A DNA stretch of 64,000 bases from Leeuwenhoekiella sp. (GTDB lineage Bacteria; Bacteroidota; Bacteroidia; Flavobacteriales; Flavobacteriaceae). The first letter of the stretch is position 1. Each line of letters begins with the position of its first letter. Below the pieces are notes generated by a model. The model was not told the origin of the DNA and ran no database searches. It worked only from the letters and a program-made list of their open reading frames with translations. Shown here piece after piece: positions 16,496-27,353 of the stretch. The DNA lies in the NCBI GenBank assembly GCA_002708845.1, contig PAPI01000015.1, positions 43,631-107,630 on the forward strand. Reading direction: 5' to 3'. A program made the position numbers and the translations under genes.

Positions 16496-16852
16496 GGTTG
16501 GTTGTAAGCGAAATAAGAAATACAAAATCAGTAATCGGTATTTAGTCTCAATATGCAGTCTGCAGTGCTTTCCCTGGAAAATAAAGCATTGAGAACTTAC
16601 TTCAGATTCATTTGAAGTGTATTCTTAGCTGCAATTTTCCTGAGATTGAATCATTTTGAATCCAGTTGGATGAATACGAAATAGGAAATCAGGGACGCGT
16701 TACCTGTGGAATGAATTTAAAATTCCAGATAGAAGTATTTTTTATATGAATCCATAGTTTGAGCGGTCCGGATGTTGCCCAAAATGTTGAGTAACAGCAT
16801 TTGTATCTGTTTTTATACATTTACAGAACCCCTACCGGAATCAAATCAGAAT
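16496..16852. other. gap with fragments of the dispersed intergenic repeat
   Basis: It contains a short run of linker-like words (AAGAAATACAAAATCAG, then CAGTCTGCAGT near 16557-16572) shared with the mosaic repeats elsewhere in the window. The rest shows no gene or clear promoter. An in-frame ATG at 16772 would extend the next protein, but the added 27 residues precede the signal peptide and look non-coding. Confidence 0.5.
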
Positions 16853-19573
16853 ATGATAAAATTTCTTCAGCAGTATTGGTGTCTGGTTGTGCTTTGGATT
16901 GGGGTCCTGGGGTGCTTTGAGCCTGTACATGCACAGCTCAATCAACTGCAGTATGCCGAAAAGATTTACCTGCAAACCGATGCTGATGTTTACACCTCGG
17001 GAAATCAAATCTGGTTTAAGGCCATTGTTTTGTTGGGTCCCAATCATATACTTTCTAAATCGAGTGGTGTACTTCATGTAGAATTGATCGGTCCCGATCG
17101 CGAAGAGGTAGTCTCCCAGCTCATCAAACTGCAAGATGGAATCGGTGCCGGAAGCATCACTTTAGATCCTGAACTTGCTGAAGGAACCTATTTTCTGCGG
17201 GCTTATACCCGTTGGAATCAGAATTTTGAATCCGATTTTATCTTTCAAAAAACCATCCCCATTTTCAGTCCGCAGGGACAGGTATCGCGAGCCACACGCC
17301 CCTTACAGATTACCCAAAAAAACACTAATGATGACAAAAGCCTTACTGTCCGTTTAGACCCCAAATCGGTTGATAGCCTGCATCGCGGTAAGCTGGATGT
17401 TTTTATCAATCTGGACGGAAAGCACGATACGCTGGCCGTTCGCCAGAAAGAAGGGGACTTTTATGTGCTTGAATATCCATTGGAAACAGATAGCGATGTG
17501 CTCAGCATCAGCTATCGTACTGATTCCGGTAAAAAACAGTACCAAACCATTGCGCTAGATACTTCAAAAATCGATCTACAATTTTTTCCGGAAGGTGGAG
17601 ATTTGATTGCAGGTATTCCAGCACTGGTGGGCTTTAAAGCGGTAGGTTATGACGGTCTGGGACGTCAGGTTTCCGGTACGATTACCGATCAAAACGGAAC
17701 CGAGCTTACTACATTTACAAGCAATGTACTGGGAATGGGCAGTTTTCGCCTAAATTCAAAAAGCGATACACTAAATTATTTTGCAGAGCTACAACGTCAG
17801 GATGGTTCTATTAGAAAAATTCCGTTACCAAAAGTTCAGGCTTCGGGGAGTACCCTTAGTATTCGGAATATGGGAGCGGGATTGCAGGTTCAGGTGTTGT
17901 CCAATCAAATTCCCAATGATACAATCCGGCTGCAGCTCAGCAGTCGCGGTAAGACGTACTATAATTTAAGGGAACCTCTGAATAAGGGATTACTTAGTGC
18001 AATTTTTCCGGGAGCTAAACTTCCGTTTGGTATTCTAGAGATTTCGCTTTTTGACAATCAGAACGTGCAGCTGGCGCGGCGCCTGTATTTTAATGATTTT
18101 GGGATGGCACAACTGAAGCTTGTTGCTAACCAGGATCAGGAGGTCTATGCTCCCCGGGAAGAATTGCACCTGCAGCTAGAGGTTACAGACACTGCCGGGA
18201 ATCCCCGGGCTGCCCATGCTTCGGTTTTGGTACTGGATGAAAAGCAACTGGGTGGACAGGCCGAAAACCGTACAAATATCCTGTCCTATTTTTTACTACA
18301 GTCTGAATTGCGGGGTCACATCGAGCAACCGGGGTATTATTTTGAGGGCGACCGTATACGCACTGCCGATATTGATAAACTGTTGCTTACACAGGGGTGG
18401 GCGCGTTACAAATATGACCACACCGTGACTTCCCGTACATTTTTACCGGAGCCTGTATTAATGCTTTCCGGTACGGTAAGCGCAGCCTTTAACAAAAACA
18501 AGCGCCGGGATGATATAAAACTTACCCTGATGAGTTTTGGCGATGATATCCTGTTTCAGGAACAACACAGTGATAGTCTGGGCCGCTTTAATTTTAATCT
18601 GGATAACCTGAGTGGAGGCTATCAAAATATGGTGCTGCAAACCACCAGTGAGAAAGGAAAAAACAAAGATTACAACCTGAATTTAAAACAAACCAAAAAG
18701 CCAGAAATACGGGTGCAACAGCAGCAGGAATTTGTGATTGCAGACACCACTATTGTAGAGGCCGCCCTTCAAAAGATCGATAAGCAGCGTATACTACGCG
18801 AGGCCATACCCTTTGGAGGCGAGGATATCGCGCTGGATGAAGTTTTGGTAAACAGTTATAAAATGACGCCGAAGCGTCAGGAAGTGGCCGATAAATATGG
18901 AATGCCCGATGAAGTCATAGATGGCAAGGCCATACAGGACAAAGAGGAAAAATGGTCATATGGTCTCTACAGTGTATTGCTCTTCAATTTTCCGGATAAG
19001 ATACGTATTGTTAGAAAAGCGGGTGTGCTTCGGGCAGAGGTGAGTCTTTCAGATACGACTCTGGTACTGGTAGACGGTAAACCTGTTTTAGGCTATAATT
19101 ATGATTTGATTCCCAACTTGCCGGTTAGCGAGGTAGAAAGCTTTGAAATTATTGAAATGGCAAAAAACTTTTCCAGCCTGTATCTGGAAGCCTATCCCAA
19201 TGCGAGTCCGCTGGAGGCCCCTCCCTGGGGTCACGTAATCGCGATTTATACCTATGGCGGCAACGGTCTGTTTGCTGCCGAACGCCCCAAGGGTATACTT
19301 AAGGAACGGGTACAGGTATTTTCAGAACCGGAAGCCTTTTATACGCCGAAATACGAGACGCAGCAGGATTTGAACCGGTCTGAACCGGATTTAAGGAGCA
19401 CCCTGTATTGGGAACCAGATCTGCAAATCGACGAAAACGGCAAAGCAGCTGTTGAGTTTTATAACCCCGATAATACCGGGACAATGTTGCTTTATATCGA
19501 AGCTGTTTCCCCTCAGGGAGAGTTGGGGTATAGCTTAAAGCGCTATCAAATACTGGAGGAGGAGGATCCTTAA
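16853..19573 (+). CDS. MG2-type macroglobulin-like envelope protein with degenerate TonB-plug segment
   Basis: 906 residues from the ATG at 16853, chosen because it gives a signal peptide (hydrophobic core CLVVLWIGVLG, end EPVHAQ). Early MG1/MG2 phrases are YLQTDADVYTSGNQIWFKA and EGTYFLRAYTRW; several beta modules follow. Near the C-terminus is a plug-like stretch (LDEVLVNSYK, LVLVDGKPVLG, VESFEIIEMAK) that lacks the usual RG-containing core. The protein ends with LYWEPDLQIDENGKAAVEFY, exactly the point where its larger paralog encoded at 22764 goes on into the thioester domain, so it is a short, thioester-less version. Such proteins are common in Bacteroidota and poorly characterised. Confidence 0.8.
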   Translation: MIKFLQQYWCLVVLWIGVLGCFEPVHAQLNQLQYAEKIYLQTDADVYTSGNQIWFKAIVLLGPNHILSKSSGVLHVELIGPDREEVVSQLIKLQDGIGAGSITLDPELAEGTYFLRAYTRWNQNFESDFIFQKTIPIFSPQGQVSRATRPLQITQKNTNDDKSLTVRLDPKSVDSLHRGKLDVFINLDGKHDTLAVRQKEGDFYVLEYPLETDSDVLSISYRTDSGKKQYQTIALDTSKIDLQFFPEGGDLIAGIPALVGFKAVGYDGLGRQVSGTITDQNGTELTTFTSNVLGMGSFRLNSKSDTLNYFAELQRQDGSIRKIPLPKVQASGSTLSIRNMGAGLQVQVLSNQIPNDTIRLQLSSRGKTYYNLREPLNKGLLSAIFPGAKLPFGILEISLFDNQNVQLARRLYFNDFGMAQLKLVANQDQEVYAPREELHLQLEVTDTAGNPRAAHASVLVLDEKQLGGQAENRTNILSYFLLQSELRGHIEQPGYYFEGDRIRTADIDKLLLTQGWARYKYDHTVTSRTFLPEPVLMLSGTVSAAFNKNKRRDDIKLTLMSFGDDILFQEQHSDSLGRFNFNLDNLSGGYQNMVLQTTSEKGKNKDYNLNLKQTKKPEIRVQQQQEFVIADTTIVEAALQKIDKQRILREAIPFGGEDIALDEVLVNSYKMTPKRQEVADKYGMPDEVIDGKAIQDKEEKWSYGLYSVLLFNFPDKIRIVRKAGVLRAEVSLSDTTLVLVDGKPVLGYNYDLIPNLPVSEVESFEIIEMAKNFSSLYLEAYPNASPLEAPPWGHVIAIYTYGGNGLFAAERPKGILKERVQVFSEPEAFYTPKYETQQDLNRSEPDLRSTLYWEPDLQIDENGKAAVEFYNPDNTGTMLLYIEAVSPQGELGYSLKRYQILEEEDP

Positions 19574-19956: not shown

Positions 19957-22764
19957 ATGATATATTTAAAATACCTGCTTAGCCTGTTGCTGCTGGTGGC
20001 TGCATCGGGTAATGCACAGGAGGGGGTGCTCAAAGGAACACTTCTGGATGATGAGGGTTTACCCTTGCCTGGCGCAAATGTACAGGTGAAAGGAACCCCC
20101 AGAGGAGTACAAACCGATTTTGATGGCGTCTATGCGATTCCCTGTGAGGTCGGGGATACGCTTGTCATTACCTACGTGGGTTATGCTACGCGCGAAGTAC
20201 TGGTGACCCCGGCCATGTTTAATACCGGTGATGTTAAACTAAACCAACTTAGAAAGGCTGTACAACCCATTAGGAGTAGCGCGTATGAGCAGGCTATCAG
20301 GCAAAACAATCCCTCTTTTCACGGGATTCCCGATTTGAATTCCTCTTCATTAACCTACACCGTTAACCGGAAGTATTTAAATGTCAATCGCATCAAAGCT
20401 ATTAGTACCCGCGATAGTGTGGTAAAGCTGATAACCTTTGCAGATGATGCTTTTTTTGAAATAGGGGTGAGTCAGCGTTCCGGGTTACAATATGTGCCCG
20501 ATCGTAACCTGCCGCAAACCCAAAATCGTTATGCCCAGGGGCGCTCGGTTGATGGCAGTCTGACTTACAGGGGGCCGGAGACGGGTGAACTTTTCAGTTA
20601 CGGGCCTTTACTCAGCACGCTTGAATATGATGAAAGTACCTATCTCTACGATCGCAACGGCAGACCGGTTGCTGCAGGTGAGGGTTCCGGAATGCCCGTC
20701 AGGCCTTATTCAAACTCGATTTTCAATACCGGCTTTAATACCGCTACGTCTGTACAATTAGGTATTTACTACGATATTCACAAACTGCATTTCGATTTTG
20801 CCAATGGGAGGCAACGGGATCTTTTTGATCAGGATAAGCAAATCTATAACCGCTTTAATTTAGGGTATCAAAAAATCAATTCGTTGTTTAATTATTCCCT
20901 ACAGGCAGCTTACAGTAACTCAAGTACCGGAAATGCAAACCTCAATGCCCTTCACAACCAGATTTACTACAGCAATCTGATTACTCCGCCTACTTTTTCA
21001 AACACTCAGGGTATTCGGTTTGATAATAGTATGCAGCGTAGCTTTAACCCGGGCAATTACAATAATCCCTACTGGTTATTGCAAACCAATCAAAATCAAA
21101 TTACTCAGGATGCTCTGAGTTTGCAGGGAACCGGTAGCTATTCCGGTGAAAAATTTAAACTGACATTCAAAGCGCATTATGACCGAGCCAGCGAAACACA
21201 GGAGGTAAATCTCCCTCCCGGTACGGCCGGGTTTGCAACAGGTTTGCGTACTCAAAAGGATTTTAAAAGCCAAAACCTGAATACCGAAGCAAAAGCAGCC
21301 TGGACGAATCTGTATATCACCGATTTCTTAAATTTTAGTCCTTCGTCAACCCTACAATATGACAACAGTGTATTGGATTTTGAGTTTCTGGAAACAGGCA
21401 GCATTTCTAATAAGCGTAAGGAAGAACCTTCCAAGTCAACCGTGCAAATGCTCAATTCTCTGAGAGCTGATGCCGATTTCTACGATTTTAATTTGAGCCT
21501 TAATCTACAGCAGAAGTTTTTTACCAGTTCTTTGCAGGGAAGCGCGTGGTGGCTGCCCGATCTTATTTTAAAAGCAGATCTGGGAGGGCTATTTTACAGC
21601 GACTTTTTAAGGCAACTCCACTTTACGGCAGCCTACAGCAACAACGTGGGGGATCTCTCGCTGTATTACTCCAATTACGGGTACAACAGTCTTAATCTTC
21701 GGGTCGCAGAAAGTCAGCAGTACACCACCAATGCCGATTTGTTTAATAATTCGGCTTTAAAACTTGAGACTATTACCGGCTTCGATTTTAGCCTTGAAGC
21801 CTCGTTGTGGTCTCAGGTACAGGTTAATCTGAGTTATTACCGTACAAAGACTGATAACGCCATATTTCCTGTTTATGAAAATAACAGCTGGCAACTTGAT
21901 AATGTTGCGAGCCTGCGCGATGCGGGATTTGAAGCAAGTATAGAACTGGATACCTATCACTATTCGGACAAAAGGGAGTTCAGGTATACCACGGCTTTGA
22001 GCTTTAGTACACACAATCCTCTTGTGCTTGGCTTAGGCAGATCTCTTGCCGGAAGATTACCCATTGCCGGTTTTGAAGAGATTTCCCAAAATTTAATACC
22101 CGGTAAACCTGTAGGCGTATTGTATGGTTCTGCTTATTTACGGGACGAGCAGGGCAACCGGCTTATAGCTGCTGACGGGTTTCCTATACTGGATTCTGAA
22201 CCTCAGATTCTGGGAGATCCCATACCTGACTTTAATCTGGGATGGAGTAATACGCTGCGCTATAAACAGTTTCTGCTGAAGTTTAAATTAGACTGGCAAC
22301 AAGGAGGTGAGGTATGGAATGGTACCCAACAGGTTTTAAACTATCTGGGAACCTCAGAGGAGTCTGCACGGGATCAAAATATCAGCAATTATATTTTTGA
22401 CGGGTTAGCTCCTGATGGTACACCCAACACGCAAGCCGTTGCTTTTGCCCCAACCGATGCCCCGGTAACCTCCAATCGCTGGGTGCGCTATGGCTATGCC
22501 GGGATCGCCGAAGCGGCTATTGCCGATGGGAGTTTTCTCAACTTACAAAGCCTGAGCTTTACTTACGATCTTAAACAGGAGACCAGTAACCTATTCAAGG
22601 AGCTTAGTCTGAGCCTGTATGGCAACAATTTATGGAATAGCGCCGGTTTTAAGGGTGCCAATCCGTATAGTAACTTGTTTGGGACTTCTGCCGGAAATGC
22701 CCTCAATTATTTCAATATGCCTTTGGCTTCGGAAGTGGGTATTCATTTAAATTTTAAAATCTAA
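19957..22764 (+). CDS. SusC/RagA-type outer membrane barrel apparently lacking the plug domain
   Basis: 935 residues. A signal peptide ends at about 20 (AASGNAQ). A carboxypeptidase-regulatory-like domain follows (22-95: GTLLDDEGLPLPGANVQVKG, TDFDGVYAIP, VTYVGYATREV-like). In SusC proteins a 110-130 residue plug with VVVTA, RG, VDG and GAAAALYG-type motifs should come next. Here only about 65 unrelated residues (RSSAYEQAIRQNNPSFHGIP onward) lead straight into barrel strands (NRYAQGRSVDGSLTYRGP). The C-terminus is a normal SusC ending (SLYGNNLWNSAGFKGANPYS). The stop overlaps the next start (TAATG); that next protein does contain a plug. No SusD gene is present. Confidence 0.82.
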   Translation: MIYLKYLLSLLLLVAASGNAQEGVLKGTLLDDEGLPLPGANVQVKGTPRGVQTDFDGVYAIPCEVGDTLVITYVGYATREVLVTPAMFNTGDVKLNQLRKAVQPIRSSAYEQAIRQNNPSFHGIPDLNSSSLTYTVNRKYLNVNRIKAISTRDSVVKLITFADDAFFEIGVSQRSGLQYVPDRNLPQTQNRYAQGRSVDGSLTYRGPETGELFSYGPLLSTLEYDESTYLYDRNGRPVAAGEGSGMPVRPYSNSIFNTGFNTATSVQLGIYYDIHKLHFDFANGRQRDLFDQDKQIYNRFNLGYQKINSLFNYSLQAAYSNSSTGNANLNALHNQIYYSNLITPPTFSNTQGIRFDNSMQRSFNPGNYNNPYWLLQTNQNQITQDALSLQGTGSYSGEKFKLTFKAHYDRASETQEVNLPPGTAGFATGLRTQKDFKSQNLNTEAKAAWTNLYITDFLNFSPSSTLQYDNSVLDFEFLETGSISNKRKEEPSKSTVQMLNSLRADADFYDFNLSLNLQQKFFTSSLQGSAWWLPDLILKADLGGLFYSDFLRQLHFTAAYSNNVGDLSLYYSNYGYNSLNLRVAESQQYTTNADLFNNSALKLETITGFDFSLEASLWSQVQVNLSYYRTKTDNAIFPVYENNSWQLDNVASLRDAGFEASIELDTYHYSDKREFRYTTALSFSTHNPLVLGLGRSLAGRLPIAGFEEISQNLIPGKPVGVLYGSAYLRDEQGNRLIAADGFPILDSEPQILGDPIPDFNLGWSNTLRYKQFLLKFKLDWQQGGEVWNGTQQVLNYLGTSEESARDQNISNYIFDGLAPDGTPNTQAVAFAPTDAPVTSNRWVRYGYAGIAEAAIADGSFLNLQSLSFTYDLKQETSNLFKELSLSLYGNNLWNSAGFKGANPYSNLFGTSAGNALNYFNMPLASEVGIHLNFKI

Positions 22765-25700
22765 TGCTTCAGTATAATTCTATTTTCAGGTTGTTTGTTT
22801 TACTGCTAATCTTCGGGATAACAAGGACTGTAAAAGCACAGGAATACCATACGATCGAAAAGATGTATACCCATACTGACCGGCCGTTTTATTTTCCGGG
22901 AGAAACCATTTGGTTTAAAACCTATGCGGTTGATGAAGCAAATATTCCTTCAGCTATAAGTGATGTGGTAGTAACCGAGTTGATTTCGCCATCGGGTGAT
23001 GTGGTACAAACCAAACGTTATTACCTCAATCTGGGCTATGCGTATGGCGAGTTTCGACTAAAGAAGGAATGGGTTGGAGGCCGGTATACGCTACGCAGTT
23101 ACAGCCAGTATATGCGTAATCAGGGCGAGGAATCTTTTTTTACGAAAGAAATCACCGTGCAAAAAGTCGTGGTGCCTCAATTGCTGGTTGAGTTTGAATT
23201 TGATCGGGAAGCTTATGGTAAAGGCAGTAAGGTAAGTGCAGATTATACGCTGGAAGATCTGAACAATAAACCTGTGGCGGGTGCAGATCTCGTAGCCGCT
23301 TTATATCTGGACGGTCAGGTTGTGGCCGAGCAAAAGCTGCAAACCCCCGCAGATGGGAAACAGAAAATAGGCTTTAAGCTTCCTGACGACCTCAATACTG
23401 TGGATGCCGTCGTGGTGGTAAAGGCATCGCATCAGGGGGTTGAAGAATCGATCTCCCGCAGTGTCCCGGTACTGCTTGATAAGCTGGATCTTCAATTTAT
23501 GCCTGAAGGAGGAAAACTGATCTTAGGGAGTGTCAACCGGGTGGCGTTTAAAGCCCTTGATCCCTTTGGGAGACCCGCAGATGTAAGCGGCAGTATTGTA
23601 GATGAGACCGGAAAGACAGTCGTTCCTTTTAGCAGCTTCCATGACGGTATGGGGAGTATACTTTTAAACCCTGCTACAGGAAAGCGTTATTTTGCACAGG
23701 TCAAAAAGCCTTTTGAGTCTGATTCCCTTTATGAGTTACCGAAAACGGAGCTTATGGGAGCCAAATTGAGTAGGGTAAAACAGGAGCACGAAAACCTGAT
23801 TTTCGACGTATATACAACGGCTAAATTTAAAGGTCAAATCGTTTTAACAACAGCAGACCAGCAAGATTTGGATACAAAAGCTATCGTTGTAGAAGAAGGT
23901 ACAACTTCCCTGAGCATTCCCATTACTAATTATGCCCGGGGGATTGTAAAACTGCAATTACAGGATCGCTTAGGAATGTTTTTGAGTGAACGGCTGGTGT
24001 TTATCAATCCCCGAAACGGTCTGCACATCCAATTAAAACCCGATAAAGAGCAGTATTTGCCCAGAGAACCGGTCAATCTGGAGATCCTTACAAAAGATGC
24101 TGCGGGCAAGCCCCTGAGCACCAACCTTTCGGTGGCGGTTGTTGATAATGCCCTGTTTACCCTGGGCGATGATAAACAGGATCGTATAGACAGTTATTTG
24201 TTGATGAGCAGTGAACTCAACGGACGTATTCATGAGCCCGCTTTCTATTTTGATGAAAAAGAACCCAAACGATTTGATGCCCTTGATTTGATCATGCTTA
24301 CACACGGCTGGCGCGATTATCTCCAAAACCCCGTGCCACTGGGAAAAGCACTTACCTATAATCCGGAGCGCAGGGATATTGTATACGGCCGTATTGAAAA
24401 CAGCCGGGGAGAACCTGTAGCAGCAAACATATTGGTTCTCGATCAGCAGGGTAAAAAAATACTTACGTTTAAAACAGATCCCGAAGGGAATTTTCAGTTT
24501 AAGCCGGGCACTGTTACCTCCTATGTGGTAGCCGCGTATACGGATGACCGCAAGGTACTGCGTATTCATCTGGATGAAACCATGGAGCAGAAATACGGGA
24601 ACGCCGGTTTTAATTTCAACAGAAACCGACCTGAAAAACCGACTCCCGAGGTTCAACTGAATGAGCCGGTATCGCCTTTAGCCAAACCTATTCAGGAGCG
24701 AGCTTTAGACCTAAGTCTGGCTGACGATAAGTCCGCACTTGATGAAGTTGTAGTCGTAGGTTATGGTGTATATGAGCGGGCCAGCGCGACCGGAGTTGTA
24801 CAGGTTGTTAATCGTGAAGAGCTCAATGGAGCAACCGGTAGTGTGGCGCAGGTATTGCAGGGCCGTGTTGCGGGCATAAAAATTAAGAAGGCTAACGGAG
24901 CAGCAGATACTCAGGTTAGCATACGTGGTACAGCCAGTATACGGGGAGATAACAATCCATTAATCATCATTGATGGGATTCCCGTTAATTCAGGGGCAGG
25001 GCCTGATGATTTTAATCTATCCCAACTGGATGCAGCACAAATTGAAGGGATAAGCGTGGTAAAAGGGGCAGCAGCTACTGCGCTTTACGGTACCCGGGGC
25101 GCAAACGGGGTGATCCTGATCACTACCAAAAATCAGAATTACGGGAATAACAAAACCCTGTTTTCCCAGAAGTATAAAAACTATGCCGTTACGCAGGTTT
25201 ATAACAGCGGTAGTGCTGTAGAACTCGATCAGCCTGCCCGGTTTTATATACCGGTATATGATCAGAAAGATCAACCGGAAGCGCGTACTGATTTTAGAAA
25301 AACCCTGTATTGGAATCCGGTAGTTCAAACCGATGCCGCCGGTAAGGCCCGTCTTCGTTTTTACAATTCAGACGCCCTGACTTCGTTTAATGTTATTGCC
25401 GAAGGTGTTGCCGCTACAGGCACGGTAGGGCATTCTGAACACGCGTACAGCGTTTCAAAACCCCTGAGAATCGATGTTAAATTACAGGCCTATGCGAGTA
25501 TAGGTGATACCCTGCAGATCCCACTGCGCATAAGTAATGAAAGTTCCAAATCGGAAACACTAAACCTGGACCTTCAGTTTACCGAAGAATTGTCATTGCT
25601 TCATGCTGCAGCAGTACCTAAACAACTCGTGCTTGCGGGAAATTCTTTTGAGGTGATTGAACTCCAGATCGTGCCTCTTAAAGCCAGTGCTTCGGTCACA

Positions 25701-27353
25701 TTTCAGGCTTCAGTAACGGGGGAAAGCAATTCAGACGCTTTTGTAGAACAAATCACTGTAGTTAGTCCGTATTTTCCTGTGGAGACCAGTATAAGTGATA
25801 GTCAAAATGGGGACTATCGTTTTGATATTGTAAATGCGGTACCGGGAAGTGTTGAAGCAGACTTCAGGCTGTATGTTGATGTAGTGGGAGATGCAATGAA
25901 TGGCATTGCCGGTATGATTCGCAAACCCTATGGGTGTTTTGAACAAACTTCTTCAGCTACTTATCCCAATATCATGGTACTTCAATATTTAAAAGCTACT
26001 GGGAAATCTAATCCAGATGTTGAAAAGCAGGCGCTTGAGTACATCGATCAGGGTTATAAGCGCTTAATCAGTTTTGAAACCAGGGAAGGCGGTTTTGAAT
26101 GGTTTGGTAAAACACCGCCCCACCAGACCTTAACCGCTTTCGGAATTCTGGAGTTTACTGAAATGAAAGCGGTCTATCCCGGCGTAAGTGAAGCCTTAAT
26201 AGATCGCACGCTTAAATGGTTACTGGACCAGCGGGATGGTCAGGGTGGTTTTTACAAAAGTAAAAAAGGCTATGATAGTTTTGCGAGTTCGCCGCCCTTA
26301 GTAGCCAACGCCTATATTGTTTATGCCCTGAGCGAAGTAGGCGTAACTACTGAAATCACTTTGGAATACGAGCAGGCATTGAAAGAGGCCTTAAGCTCTA
26401 AAGATGCCTATCAACTGGCTTTAATGGCTCTGGCAGCGCATAATTTTAAAGACGATAAAAGCTACAATCAACTTTTAGGTTTACTGACTGAACAATACGC
26501 GCGTACCGGTTTTGAATGGAATACCGATGCCACCATCACGCGTTCTTATGGCAATGCCAAATATTTAGAGACTACAGCTTTTGTGATTCTGGCGGCATTA
26601 CGTGAACATAGAGCTATAGATCTGGTTGCAGCGGGGGTACAGTATCTTGTGAAAAACAGAAAACGGGGAACCTTTGGCAATACACAAACCACGGTAATGT
26701 GTTTAAAGGCATTGATTCATTATAATCAGGTACAAACCGCAAAAGCGTTACAGTCTGAATCCTGGGTTAGCCTGAAGCTCAATGAACACGAACTCGATTT
26801 AAAACAGGTTGCCCTTAAAAACGGAATAATACGGTTAGACAGTCTTCAAAGCTACCTTAAACCCGGAAGAAATGCATTTAGCGTTTTGTTTTCAGATGCT
26901 GGGCAGACCTACCCATTTACGCTGAATTGTTCCTGGAAGAGTAGTTTGCCAAAAAATGCTGATGAAACCCCGGTAGTACTTAAAACCCAAATGAGCGAGG
27001 CATTCGTGAAAAAAGGAGATTTAGCCCGTTTGCAGGTTGAGGTACAGAATACAGATCCAATCGGAAAAGGGATGATTACTGCCATTGTCGGTATCCCATC
27101 CGGAGCTTCTGTGCAGCCTTACCAGCTCAAAGAATTGATGGAAGAGGAACAAATCGCTTATTACGAAGTTGTTGAAAACTATGTGGTTTTATACTGGCGC
27201 TCCATCGAATCTTCCGGAGTAAAACGCGTTAATCTAGATCTTAAAACCGATGTGGCCGGCAGGTATACTGCTCCGGCAAGTACGGTATATCCCTATTATG
27301 GAGAAGAATTCAAATTTTGGACCAGGGGTGTTGAATTACATATTGAAAATTAG
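22764..27353 (+). CDS. thioester alpha-2-macroglobulin-like protein with an internal TonB plug
   Basis: 1529 residues. A signal peptide is followed by MG-type modules (THTDRPFYFPGETIWFKTY). At about 660-790 sits a complete SusC-style plug: DEVVVVGYGVY, a QVLQGRVAGI turn, VSIRGTASIRG, PLIIIDGIPV, and VVKGAAATALYGTRGANGV. An A2M domain (RKTLYWNPVVQTDAAGKAR) follows. The thioester domain has YGCFEQTSS with Cys1058 and Gln1061, matching the C-x-E-Q rule (CGEQ in animals, CLEQ in E. coli). Alpha/alpha-toroid repeats and a receptor-like C-terminal domain follow. A2M proteins trap proteases through the thioester; the plug suggests contact with a TonB barrel. It is translationally coupled to the plug-less barrel gene upstream. 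Confidence 0.85.
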   Translation: MLQYNSIFRLFVLLLIFGITRTVKAQEYHTIEKMYTHTDRPFYFPGETIWFKTYAVDEANIPSAISDVVVTELISPSGDVVQTKRYYLNLGYAYGEFRLKKEWVGGRYTLRSYSQYMRNQGEESFFTKEITVQKVVVPQLLVEFEFDREAYGKGSKVSADYTLEDLNNKPVAGADLVAALYLDGQVVAEQKLQTPADGKQKIGFKLPDDLNTVDAVVVVKASHQGVEESISRSVPVLLDKLDLQFMPEGGKLILGSVNRVAFKALDPFGRPADVSGSIVDETGKTVVPFSSFHDGMGSILLNPATGKRYFAQVKKPFESDSLYELPKTELMGAKLSRVKQEHENLIFDVYTTAKFKGQIVLTTADQQDLDTKAIVVEEGTTSLSIPITNYARGIVKLQLQDRLGMFLSERLVFINPRNGLHIQLKPDKEQYLPREPVNLEILTKDAAGKPLSTNLSVAVVDNALFTLGDDKQDRIDSYLLMSSELNGRIHEPAFYFDEKEPKRFDALDLIMLTHGWRDYLQNPVPLGKALTYNPERRDIVYGRIENSRGEPVAANILVLDQQGKKILTFKTDPEGNFQFKPGTVTSYVVAAYTDDRKVLRIHLDETMEQKYGNAGFNFNRNRPEKPTPEVQLNEPVSPLAKPIQERALDLSLADDKSALDEVVVVGYGVYERASATGVVQVVNREELNGATGSVAQVLQGRVAGIKIKKANGAADTQVSIRGTASIRGDNNPLIIIDGIPVNSGAGPDDFNLSQLDAAQIEGISVVKGAAATALYGTRGANGVILITTKNQNYGNNKTLFSQKYKNYAVTQVYNSGSAVELDQPARFYIPVYDQKDQPEARTDFRKTLYWNPVVQTDAAGKARLRFYNSDALTSFNVIAEGVAATGTVGHSEHAYSVSKPLRIDVKLQAYASIGDTLQIPLRISNESSKSETLNLDLQFTEELSLLHAAAVPKQLVLAGNSFEVIELQIVPLKASASVTFQASVTGESNSDAFVEQITVVSPYFPVETSISDSQNGDYRFDIVNAVPGSVEADFRLYVDVVGDAMNGIAGMIRKPYGCFEQTSSATYPNIMVLQYLKATGKSNPDVEKQALEYIDQGYKRLISFETREGGFEWFGKTPPHQTLTAFGILEFTEMKAVYPGVSEALIDRTLKWLLDQRDGQGGFYKSKKGYDSFASSPPLVANAYIVYALSEVGVTTEITLEYEQALKEALSSKDAYQLALMALAAHNFKDDKSYNQLLGLLTEQYARTGFEWNTDATITRSYGNAKYLETTAFVILAALREHRAIDLVAAGVQYLVKNRKRGTFGNTQTTVMCLKALIHYNQVQTAKALQSESWVSLKLNEHELDLKQVALKNGIIRLDSLQSYLKPGRNAFSVLFSDAGQTYPFTLNCSWKSSLPKNADETPVVLKTQMSEAFVKKGDLARLQVEVQNTDPIGKGMITAIVGIPSGASVQPYQLKELMEEEQIAYYEVVENYVVLYWRSIESSGVKRVNLDLKTDVAGRYTAPASTVYPYYGEEFKFWTRGVELHIEN

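What the first reader, a model, noticed from the sequence alone, without database searches (positions are those of the whole stretch)
19957..27353. SusC-type barrel without a plug, coupled to a thioester macroglobulin that carries one
Seen: the SusC-like protein has the regulatory N-terminal domain and barrel strands but only about 65 unrelated residues where a plug of 110-130 should be. The overlapping next gene (TAATG) encodes an A2M-like protein with a complete SusC plug at about residues 660-790. No SusD gene is near. Known: SusC plugs normally sit in the same chain. Inference: the plug may act in trans, letting a protease-trapping protein gate or dock onto an outer membrane channel.
Basis: partly seen in the sequence, partly recalled or inferred. 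Interest (0 to 1): 0.8.

Follow-up and report, generated by a model that had tools for sequence, protein, structure and literature searches.

The report
Plugless SusC barrel, plug on macroglobulin
In these bacteria an outer-membrane channel that normally carries its own stopper lacks it, and the stopper is instead found inside a neighbouring thioester (macroglobulin-type) trap protein, which suggests a split, two-protein gate that still has to be tested at the bench.

Summary
Window 19957-22764 encodes a SusC-type barrel with the N-terminal extension but no plug. Window 22764-27353, overlapping it by TAATG, encodes an alpha-2-macroglobulin (MG2, A2M and thioester domains, CFEQ) with a complete SusC plug and TonB box at residues 646-814. 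Against an HMM of 24 ordinary SusC, 19 module barrels cover about positions 1-88 and 250-1054, and their 19 partner macroglobulins about 88-250: a clean split. The barrel lies directly upstream (gap -1 to +5 nt) in 20 of 20 loci with varied flanks. Both genes occur in the same 16 of 397 family genomes and the same 4 of 395 phylum genomes. The macroglobulin plug keeps the TonB box (19/19), plug Arg (19/19) and plug Lys (18/19); plugs of short MG2 proteins mostly do not. The plug sits where A2M has its bait region. Best reading: a split SusC whose plug acts in trans, docking a periplasmic thioester protein on the channel. Docking is not shown: structure predictions failed, several charges conserved in SusC barrels are lost, and plug-barrel covariation is weak.

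The parts
19957..22764 (+). SusC-type barrel protein without a plug (935 aa)
   Evidence: TIGR04056 in 3 stretches, no Pfam Plug; SusC HMM positions 9-87 and 256-1052 only
20029..20244 (+). N-terminal extension, CarboxypepD_reg-like domain (residues 25-96)
   Evidence: PF13715 E 1.3e-13
20245..20451 (+). short stretch standing where the plug should be (about residues 97-165; bounds approximate)
   Evidence: unmatched by SusC HMM; not a plug by hhalign; partly conserved among the aligned barrels, Y110 invariant in 19
20452..22761 (+). barrel region (about residues 166-935)
   Evidence: profile of 19 members matches SusC structure 5fq6 chain residues 176-984, E 3.1e-42
22762..22766 (+). TAATG stop-start overlap of the two genes
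   Evidence: sequence
22764..27353 (+). alpha-2-macroglobulin-type thioester protein carrying a SusC plug (1529 aa)
   Evidence: Pfam MG2, Plug, A2M, TED_complement, A2M_recep
22860..23138 (+). MG2 domain (residues 33-125)
   Evidence: PF01835 E 6.8e-13
24726..25142 (+). SusC-type plug (residues about 655-793)
   Evidence: PF07715 E 9.9e-19; SusC HMM positions 89-268 at residues 646-814
24738..24755 (+). TonB-box-like motif LDEVVV (residues 659-664)
   Evidence: motif of this class in 19 of 19 family members; SusC TonB box VDEVVV shown necessary in Bt1763 (PMC7782687 passages)
25302..25568 (+). A2M domain PF00207 (residues 847-935), directly after the plug and its linker
   Evidence: profile from residue 843 onward aligns to human A2M 6tav from chain residue 732
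25872..26723 (+). thioester (TED) domain (residues 1037-1320)
   Evidence: PF07678 E 3.7e-33
25935..25946 (+). thioester motif CFEQ (C1058-Q1061)
   Evidence: GCFEQ in 19 of 19 members
27072..27308 (+). A2M receptor-binding-type domain (residues 1437-1515)
   Evidence: PF07677 E 1.3e-4

Best explanation
The two genes encode one split SusC-type transporter. The barrel protein makes the outer-membrane channel; its plug and TonB box sit on the partner, a secreted thioester macroglobulin with no lipid-anchor signal, in the slot that the bait region has in alpha-2-macroglobulins. The macroglobulin plug enters the barrel from the periplasm in trans, closing the channel and tethering the thioester protein to its periplasmic mouth; TonB can pull the plug through the TonB box to open the channel. 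Shown: the clean split, the fixed pairing, co-occurrence in the samples, and SusC-like constraint on the plug. Inferred: docking, TonB pulling, periplasmic location, and that the thioester acts on whatever enters.
For: Complementary coverage of one SusC HMM: sampled positions 110-230 in 0 of 19 barrels and 19 of 19 A2Ms, and nearly the reverse elsewhere. Barrel directly upstream, same strand, gap -1 to +5 nt, in 20 of 20 loci (one is a contig fragment). Same 16 of 397 family genomes carry both genes, same 4 of 395 phylum genomes; full-length matches to both in the same 3 of 13 genus genomes. The other 26 of 26 family genomes with a barrel hit at E<=1e-60 have a plug with that barrel, in G292 split over two ORFs. 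No cluster of flanking genes reaches more than 4 of 19 loci. TonB-box pattern at the plug start: A2M 19/19, SusC 24/30, short MG2 6/33. Arg of IRG: 19/19, 33/33, 10/33; Lys of VLK: 18/19, 31/33, 15/33. A TED-bearing A2M without a plug (G551) has no barrel within the 19 kb fetched. SusC plugs were seen to leave the barrel whole in detergent (PMC7782687 passages).
Against: No structure: both models failed, pLDDT 28 and 46. Several charges conserved in 25 ordinary SusC barrels are gone in the 19 plugless ones (the base at 297 and 557 and the acid at 904 kept in 0 of 19; the acid at 522 and 902 in 1 of 19), so the lumen may not take a plug in the usual way. Plug-barrel distance correlation beyond the rest of the A2M is weak (partial r 0.32, permutation p 0.06; 0.27, p 0.08 without near copies; 0.19, p 0.15 also without G240). 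A2M plugs are not one clade; G240's groups with an ordinary SusC plug while its barrel stays in the plugless clade. Plug-like domains also occur in short MG2 proteins, and in 16 of 16 such loci viewed no plugless barrel lies nearby.
Confidence: 0.6

Rival explanations
1. The barrel is closed by its own loops and the short stretch in place of the plug; the macroglobulin plug is a docking or TonB-binding handle that binds beside the barrel or elsewhere, not inside it.
For: Conserved barrel charges have changed; plug-like domains exist on macroglobulin-like proteins without a plugless barrel nearby; the replacing stretch is partly conserved among the barrels.
Against: The A2M plug keeps plug features that most short MG2 plugs lack and the pairing is exact in the samples. 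The A2M plug of G240 looks taken from ordinary SusC plugs, which fits a real plug role.
Confidence: 0.22
2. The barrel is a route of export: it carries the macroglobulin, or another partner, to the cell surface, and the plug is the part that engages the exit.
For: A TonB-dependent transporter, Oar, is required for secretion of the protease PopC in Myxococcus (abstract of PMC6434023 seen in a search listing). In G625 a VWA+Plug protein with a type IX sorting domain lies just upstream of the barrel.
Against: No type IX sorting domain in the window A2M or among the 21 families listed for the 19 members; both ends of a plug face the periplasm in known transporters (recalled).
Confidence: 0.1
3. 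The macroglobulin plug serves other, complete SusC barrels, and the adjacent plugless barrel is a decayed or structural protein.
For: The window genome has 33 matches to the plug, its own A2M included, so many complete barrels are on hand.
Against: The plugless barrel is one clade kept beside the plug carrier in 15 genus codes of the genome search and was not found without it in the samples searched (four phylum hits could not be judged).
Confidence: 0.05
4. Assembly or gene-calling artefact, a SusC gene broken by chance.
For: None found.
Against: Same arrangement in 20 loci.
Confidence: 0.01

Closest known systems
SusC/RagA-type TonB-dependent transporters of SusCD pairs (e.g. Bt2264 5fq6, Bt1763 5t3r)
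   Same: N-terminal extension, barrel, plug and TonB box are all present in the module; plugged SusC proteins are the sister group in the barrel tree, and 3 of 3 downstream neighbours of such relatives that were scanned are SusD-like
   Different: Plug and TonB box are on a second protein; no SusD seen near the pair in the window; a set of conserved barrel charges is lost
Alpha-2-macroglobulins and thioester proteins (human A2M 6tav, TEP1 2pn5, E. coli YfhM)
   Same: MG2, A2M and TED domains and the CxEQ thioester
   Different: A SusC plug stands in the bait-region slot (bait position in human A2M is recalled); no lipobox by pattern in 19 of 19, unlike YfhM, which the PDB names a lipoprotein
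Short Bacteroidota MG2 proteins with a plug-like domain (about 810-960 aa, such as window 16772-19573)
   Same: Same order of MG2 part and plug-like domain
   Different: No TED hit in the window protein or in the five others scanned; plug often truncated or degenerate; no plugless barrel nearby in 16 of 16 loci viewed

Membership tests
SusC/RagA TonB-dependent transporter (barrel protein) | N-terminal CarboxypepD_reg-like extension | tested here: met
   18 of 19 barrels, window included
SusC/RagA TonB-dependent transporter (barrel protein) | SusC-type barrel | tested here: met
   TIGR04056 in 19 of 19 at E<=0.01, but below the curated cut-off for the window protein
SusC/RagA TonB-dependent transporter (barrel protein) | plug and TonB box in the same chain | tested here: not met
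   Plug in 0 of 19; HMM and hhalign agree
SusC/RagA TonB-dependent transporter (barrel protein) | adjacent SusD | tested here: not met
   No SusD-like Pfam hit in the 21 window proteins scanned; of the neighbours at other module loci only eight proteins at four loci were scanned, none SusD-like
Alpha-2-macroglobulin with thioester | MG2, A2M and TED domains | tested here: met
   19 of 19 each
Alpha-2-macroglobulin with thioester | intact CxEQ thioester motif | tested here: met
   19 of 19
Alpha-2-macroglobulin with thioester | protease-sensitive bait region that triggers the thioester | not testable with these tools
   the slot holds a plug; A2M_BRD found in only 5 of 19
TonB-dependent plug (domain of the A2M) | complete plug with TonB box and conserved Arg and Lys | tested here: met
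   Plug and TonB box 19 of 19, Arg 19 of 19, Lys 18 of 19
TonB-dependent plug (domain of the A2M) | sits inside a barrel | not testable with these tools
   single-chain structure jobs failed; no complex was predicted

The most novel reading that the evidence does not exclude
A force-gated thioester trap: the plug occupies the bait slot, so TonB pulling the plug out of the barrel does to the macroglobulin what bait cleavage does elsewhere. Opening the outer-membrane gate and arming the covalent trap at its periplasmic mouth would be one event, so proteins or proteases that enter are captured at once. Other Bacteroidota proteins with plugs (MG2, VWA) may likewise act as trans-plugs.
Probability: 0.2. 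Interest if true: 0.95.

Novelty: new variant of a known kind. Interest (0 to 1): 0.8.

Why it matters
In the TonB-dependent transporters known to me the plug is part of the barrel chain. A natural split, with the plug on another protein, would let plug movement be studied with two separable proteins, would bear on whether SusC plugs leave the barrel whole (proposed in PMC7782687), and would link a nutrient-channel family to a thioester protein related to complement. It would also offer a role for a bacterial macroglobulin at the outer membrane.

Tried and rejected

Viral contigs: one locus with only an N-terminal-extension match, none for the A2M. The plasmid collection gave 5 records, none covering 80% of the query in one place.

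Cryptic plug in the barrel: rejected. A 16-17 residue match of the replacing stretch to the end part of the plug (hhalign probability under 1%) could be a remnant but is not significant.

BAM machinery: a weak NCBIfam BamP match in 7 of 19 barrels led me to PMC12611786 (passages only); it is not this system.

Operon with a third gene: none found. The short MG2 protein at 16772-19573, 384 nt upstream in the window, is in no cluster shared with other loci there.

Covariation by partial Mantel test: suggestive only. The macroglobulin N-terminal part correlates with the barrel beyond the C-terminal part (r 0.56, p 0.0002), which may reflect contact or shared rates.

Limits: in the large genome searches only two first-look candidates per genome were scored, so extra copies could be missed. 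Of 30 phylum genomes with a non-module barrel hit, 26 showed at least part of a plug (in G778 only its last part, at a locus edge); four could not be judged: two contig-end fragments (G553, G752) and two loci cut before the plug region (G703, G723, reported open frames 1091 and 1092 aa). The family and phylum samples overlap and related genomes are not independent. The plug tree's bootstrap had not settled; the barrel tree is a quick one with 7 truncated SusC rows left out. In some searches the G114 fragment was dropped, and SusC rows cut at a locus edge were dropped. A first TonB-box count with a fixed window gave SusC 23 of 32 and short MG2 10 of 37; one search anchored it on the plug start. 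Bait-region coordinates of human A2M, plug topology and the docking role of the plug Lys are recalled; the salt bridge from the FhuA plug (R93) to barrel Glu is from PMC11658791 passages, and equating R93 with the Arg tested here is mine.

Literature: ten full-text searches of open-licence PubMed Central listed no paper on a macroglobulin carrying a TonB plug or on a plug supplied by another protein; only passages of three papers were read, and hits beyond the listed rows were not seen. Subscription papers and preprints are not in that library. Reassembly of FhuA from separate parts is recalled and I did not find it.

Full report
The two genes. Window 19957-22764 encodes 935 aa and window 22764-27353 encodes 1529 aa; they overlap as TAATG. 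The genome is close to Leeuwenhoekiella: the barrel is 81% identical to one in L. nanhaiensis. Pfam gives the first protein only an N-terminal CarboxypepD_reg-like domain, while NCBIfam's SusC model matches it in three stretches, below its cut-off. The second protein has MG2, A2M, TED and A2M_recep domains and a full Plug domain at 674-783.

A clean split. I built an HMM from 24 ordinary, plugged SusC proteins (1054 positions). In 19 homologous pairs the barrel proteins match about positions 1-88 (18 of 19) and about 250-1054, with shorter coverage in G240, G230 and Aquimarina, while the macroglobulins match about 88-250, some to 279. At sampled positions 110-230 coverage is 0 of 19 barrels and 19 of 19 macroglobulins. 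Pfam agrees: Plug in 0 of 19 barrels and 19 of 19 macroglobulins; TED, MG2 and A2M in 19 of 19. The stretch in place of the plug is not a hidden plug by profile-profile comparison.

A fixed pair. Searches of 249 and then 397 family genomes, 395 phylum genomes, 13 genus genomes and one named collection gave 20 loci with this macroglobulin (one a contig fragment, G114). In all 20 the barrel lies directly upstream on the same strand, gap -1 to +5 nt. Among 200 flanking ORFs within 7 kb at 19 loci no cluster reaches more than 4 loci, and the nearest upstream ORF is 64 nt or more away in the 18 loci that have one. So this is a two-gene unit in changing surroundings.

Reciprocal test. In the 397 family genomes the macroglobulin with TED and plug is in 16, G114 as a fragment; five further genomes over the threshold have only partial matches of 396 bits or less, in short MG2 proteins. 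The plugless barrel is in the same 16 (G240 as two pieces, G114 as a fragment). The other 26 genomes with a barrel hit at E<=1e-60 all have a plug with that barrel, in G292 over two ORFs. In 395 phylum genomes the two genes share the same 4 genomes; of the other 30 with a barrel hit, 26 show at least part of a plug and four could not be judged. The samples overlap and related genomes are not independent.

Constraint on the plug. With one pattern anchored on the plug start, the TonB box is found in 19 of 19 macroglobulins, 24 of 30 SusC and 6 of 33 short MG2 proteins. The plug Arg is in 19/19, 33/33 and 10/33, and the plug Lys in 18/19, 31/33 and 15/33 (20 of the 33 short MG2 proteins have no residue aligned at the Arg). 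The A2M of G551, from another class, has TED but CarboxypepD_reg domains where the plug would be, and no barrel in the 19 kb fetched. Around short MG2 proteins, 16 of 16 loci viewed hold no plugless barrel; one holds a plugged SusC that matches the barrel.

Place in the macroglobulin. The profile from residue 843 on aligns with human A2M from chain residue 732 (E 4e-46), with TEP1 and with C3. The plug and its linker end just there, so they stand where the bait region lies in A2M (bait bounds recalled). No lipobox was found in 19 of 19 by pattern, so a soluble, probably periplasmic protein is likely.

Evolution. The 19 plugless barrels form one clade beside plugged SusC proteins (SH-aLRT 100; quick tree of 44 rows); 3 of 3 downstream neighbours scanned of such relatives are SusD-like. 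The macroglobulin plugs are not one clade: that of G240 groups with a SusC plug (99/98, bootstrap not settled) and is 63% identical to a SusC plug in its own genome, against 39-45% to the three other macroglobulin plugs in the genomes compared. This suggests replacement from the SusC pool; it fits a real plug role but weakens strict one-to-one coevolution.

Against. Several charges conserved in 25 ordinary SusC barrels are lost, although some are kept: an acid at 659 in 18 of 19, R729 and E852 in 19 of 19. Whether the lost ones face the plug is unknown here. The covariation test is weak.

Mechanism. In Bt1763, plugs were absent from closed complexes in detergent, TonB-box mutants had growth defects on levan like those of a strain without SusD, and removal of the plug would leave a channel of about 20-25 A (PMC7782687, passages read; its authors think the spontaneous expulsion is likely non-physiological). 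A plugless barrel therefore needs a stopper, and the one encoded beside it in 20 of 20 loci is on the macroglobulin. I judge docking in trans about 60% likely. That plug removal arms the thioester, because the plug holds the bait slot, is a bolder step (about 20%).

Novelty. Ten literature searches listed no such protein or system (see Tried and rejected); the parts are known, the arrangement appears not to be.

Noticed in passing
window 16772-19573: A short MG2 protein (933 aa) with a very degenerate plug-like region and TonB-box-like LDEVLV lies 384 nt upstream of the barrel; relatives occur in many family genomes.
   Followed up: partly
L143 3891-6206 (genome G625): A 771 aa protein with Plug, VWA and a type IX sorting domain lies 64 nt upstream of the plugless barrel: a second possible trans-plug carrier at the same locus.
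   Followed up: partly
L076 4223-4693: A 156 aa protein with a signal-peptide-like start and two copies of the end part of a plug, near an ECF sigma factor gene, 127 nt upstream of the barrel.
   Followed up: no
L076, L082, L143: ECF sigma factor genes near 3 of 19 module loci, perhaps cell-surface signalling.
   Followed up: no
G000:C36:16953-17270: The window genome has a second, weaker TED match in an open frame of 1878 aa; matches in open frames of 1852-1882 aa occur in 10 of 13 genus genomes.
   Followed up: no
L144 6174-10880 (genome G551): A TED-bearing macroglobulin with CarboxypepD_reg domains where the plug would be.
   Followed up: partly
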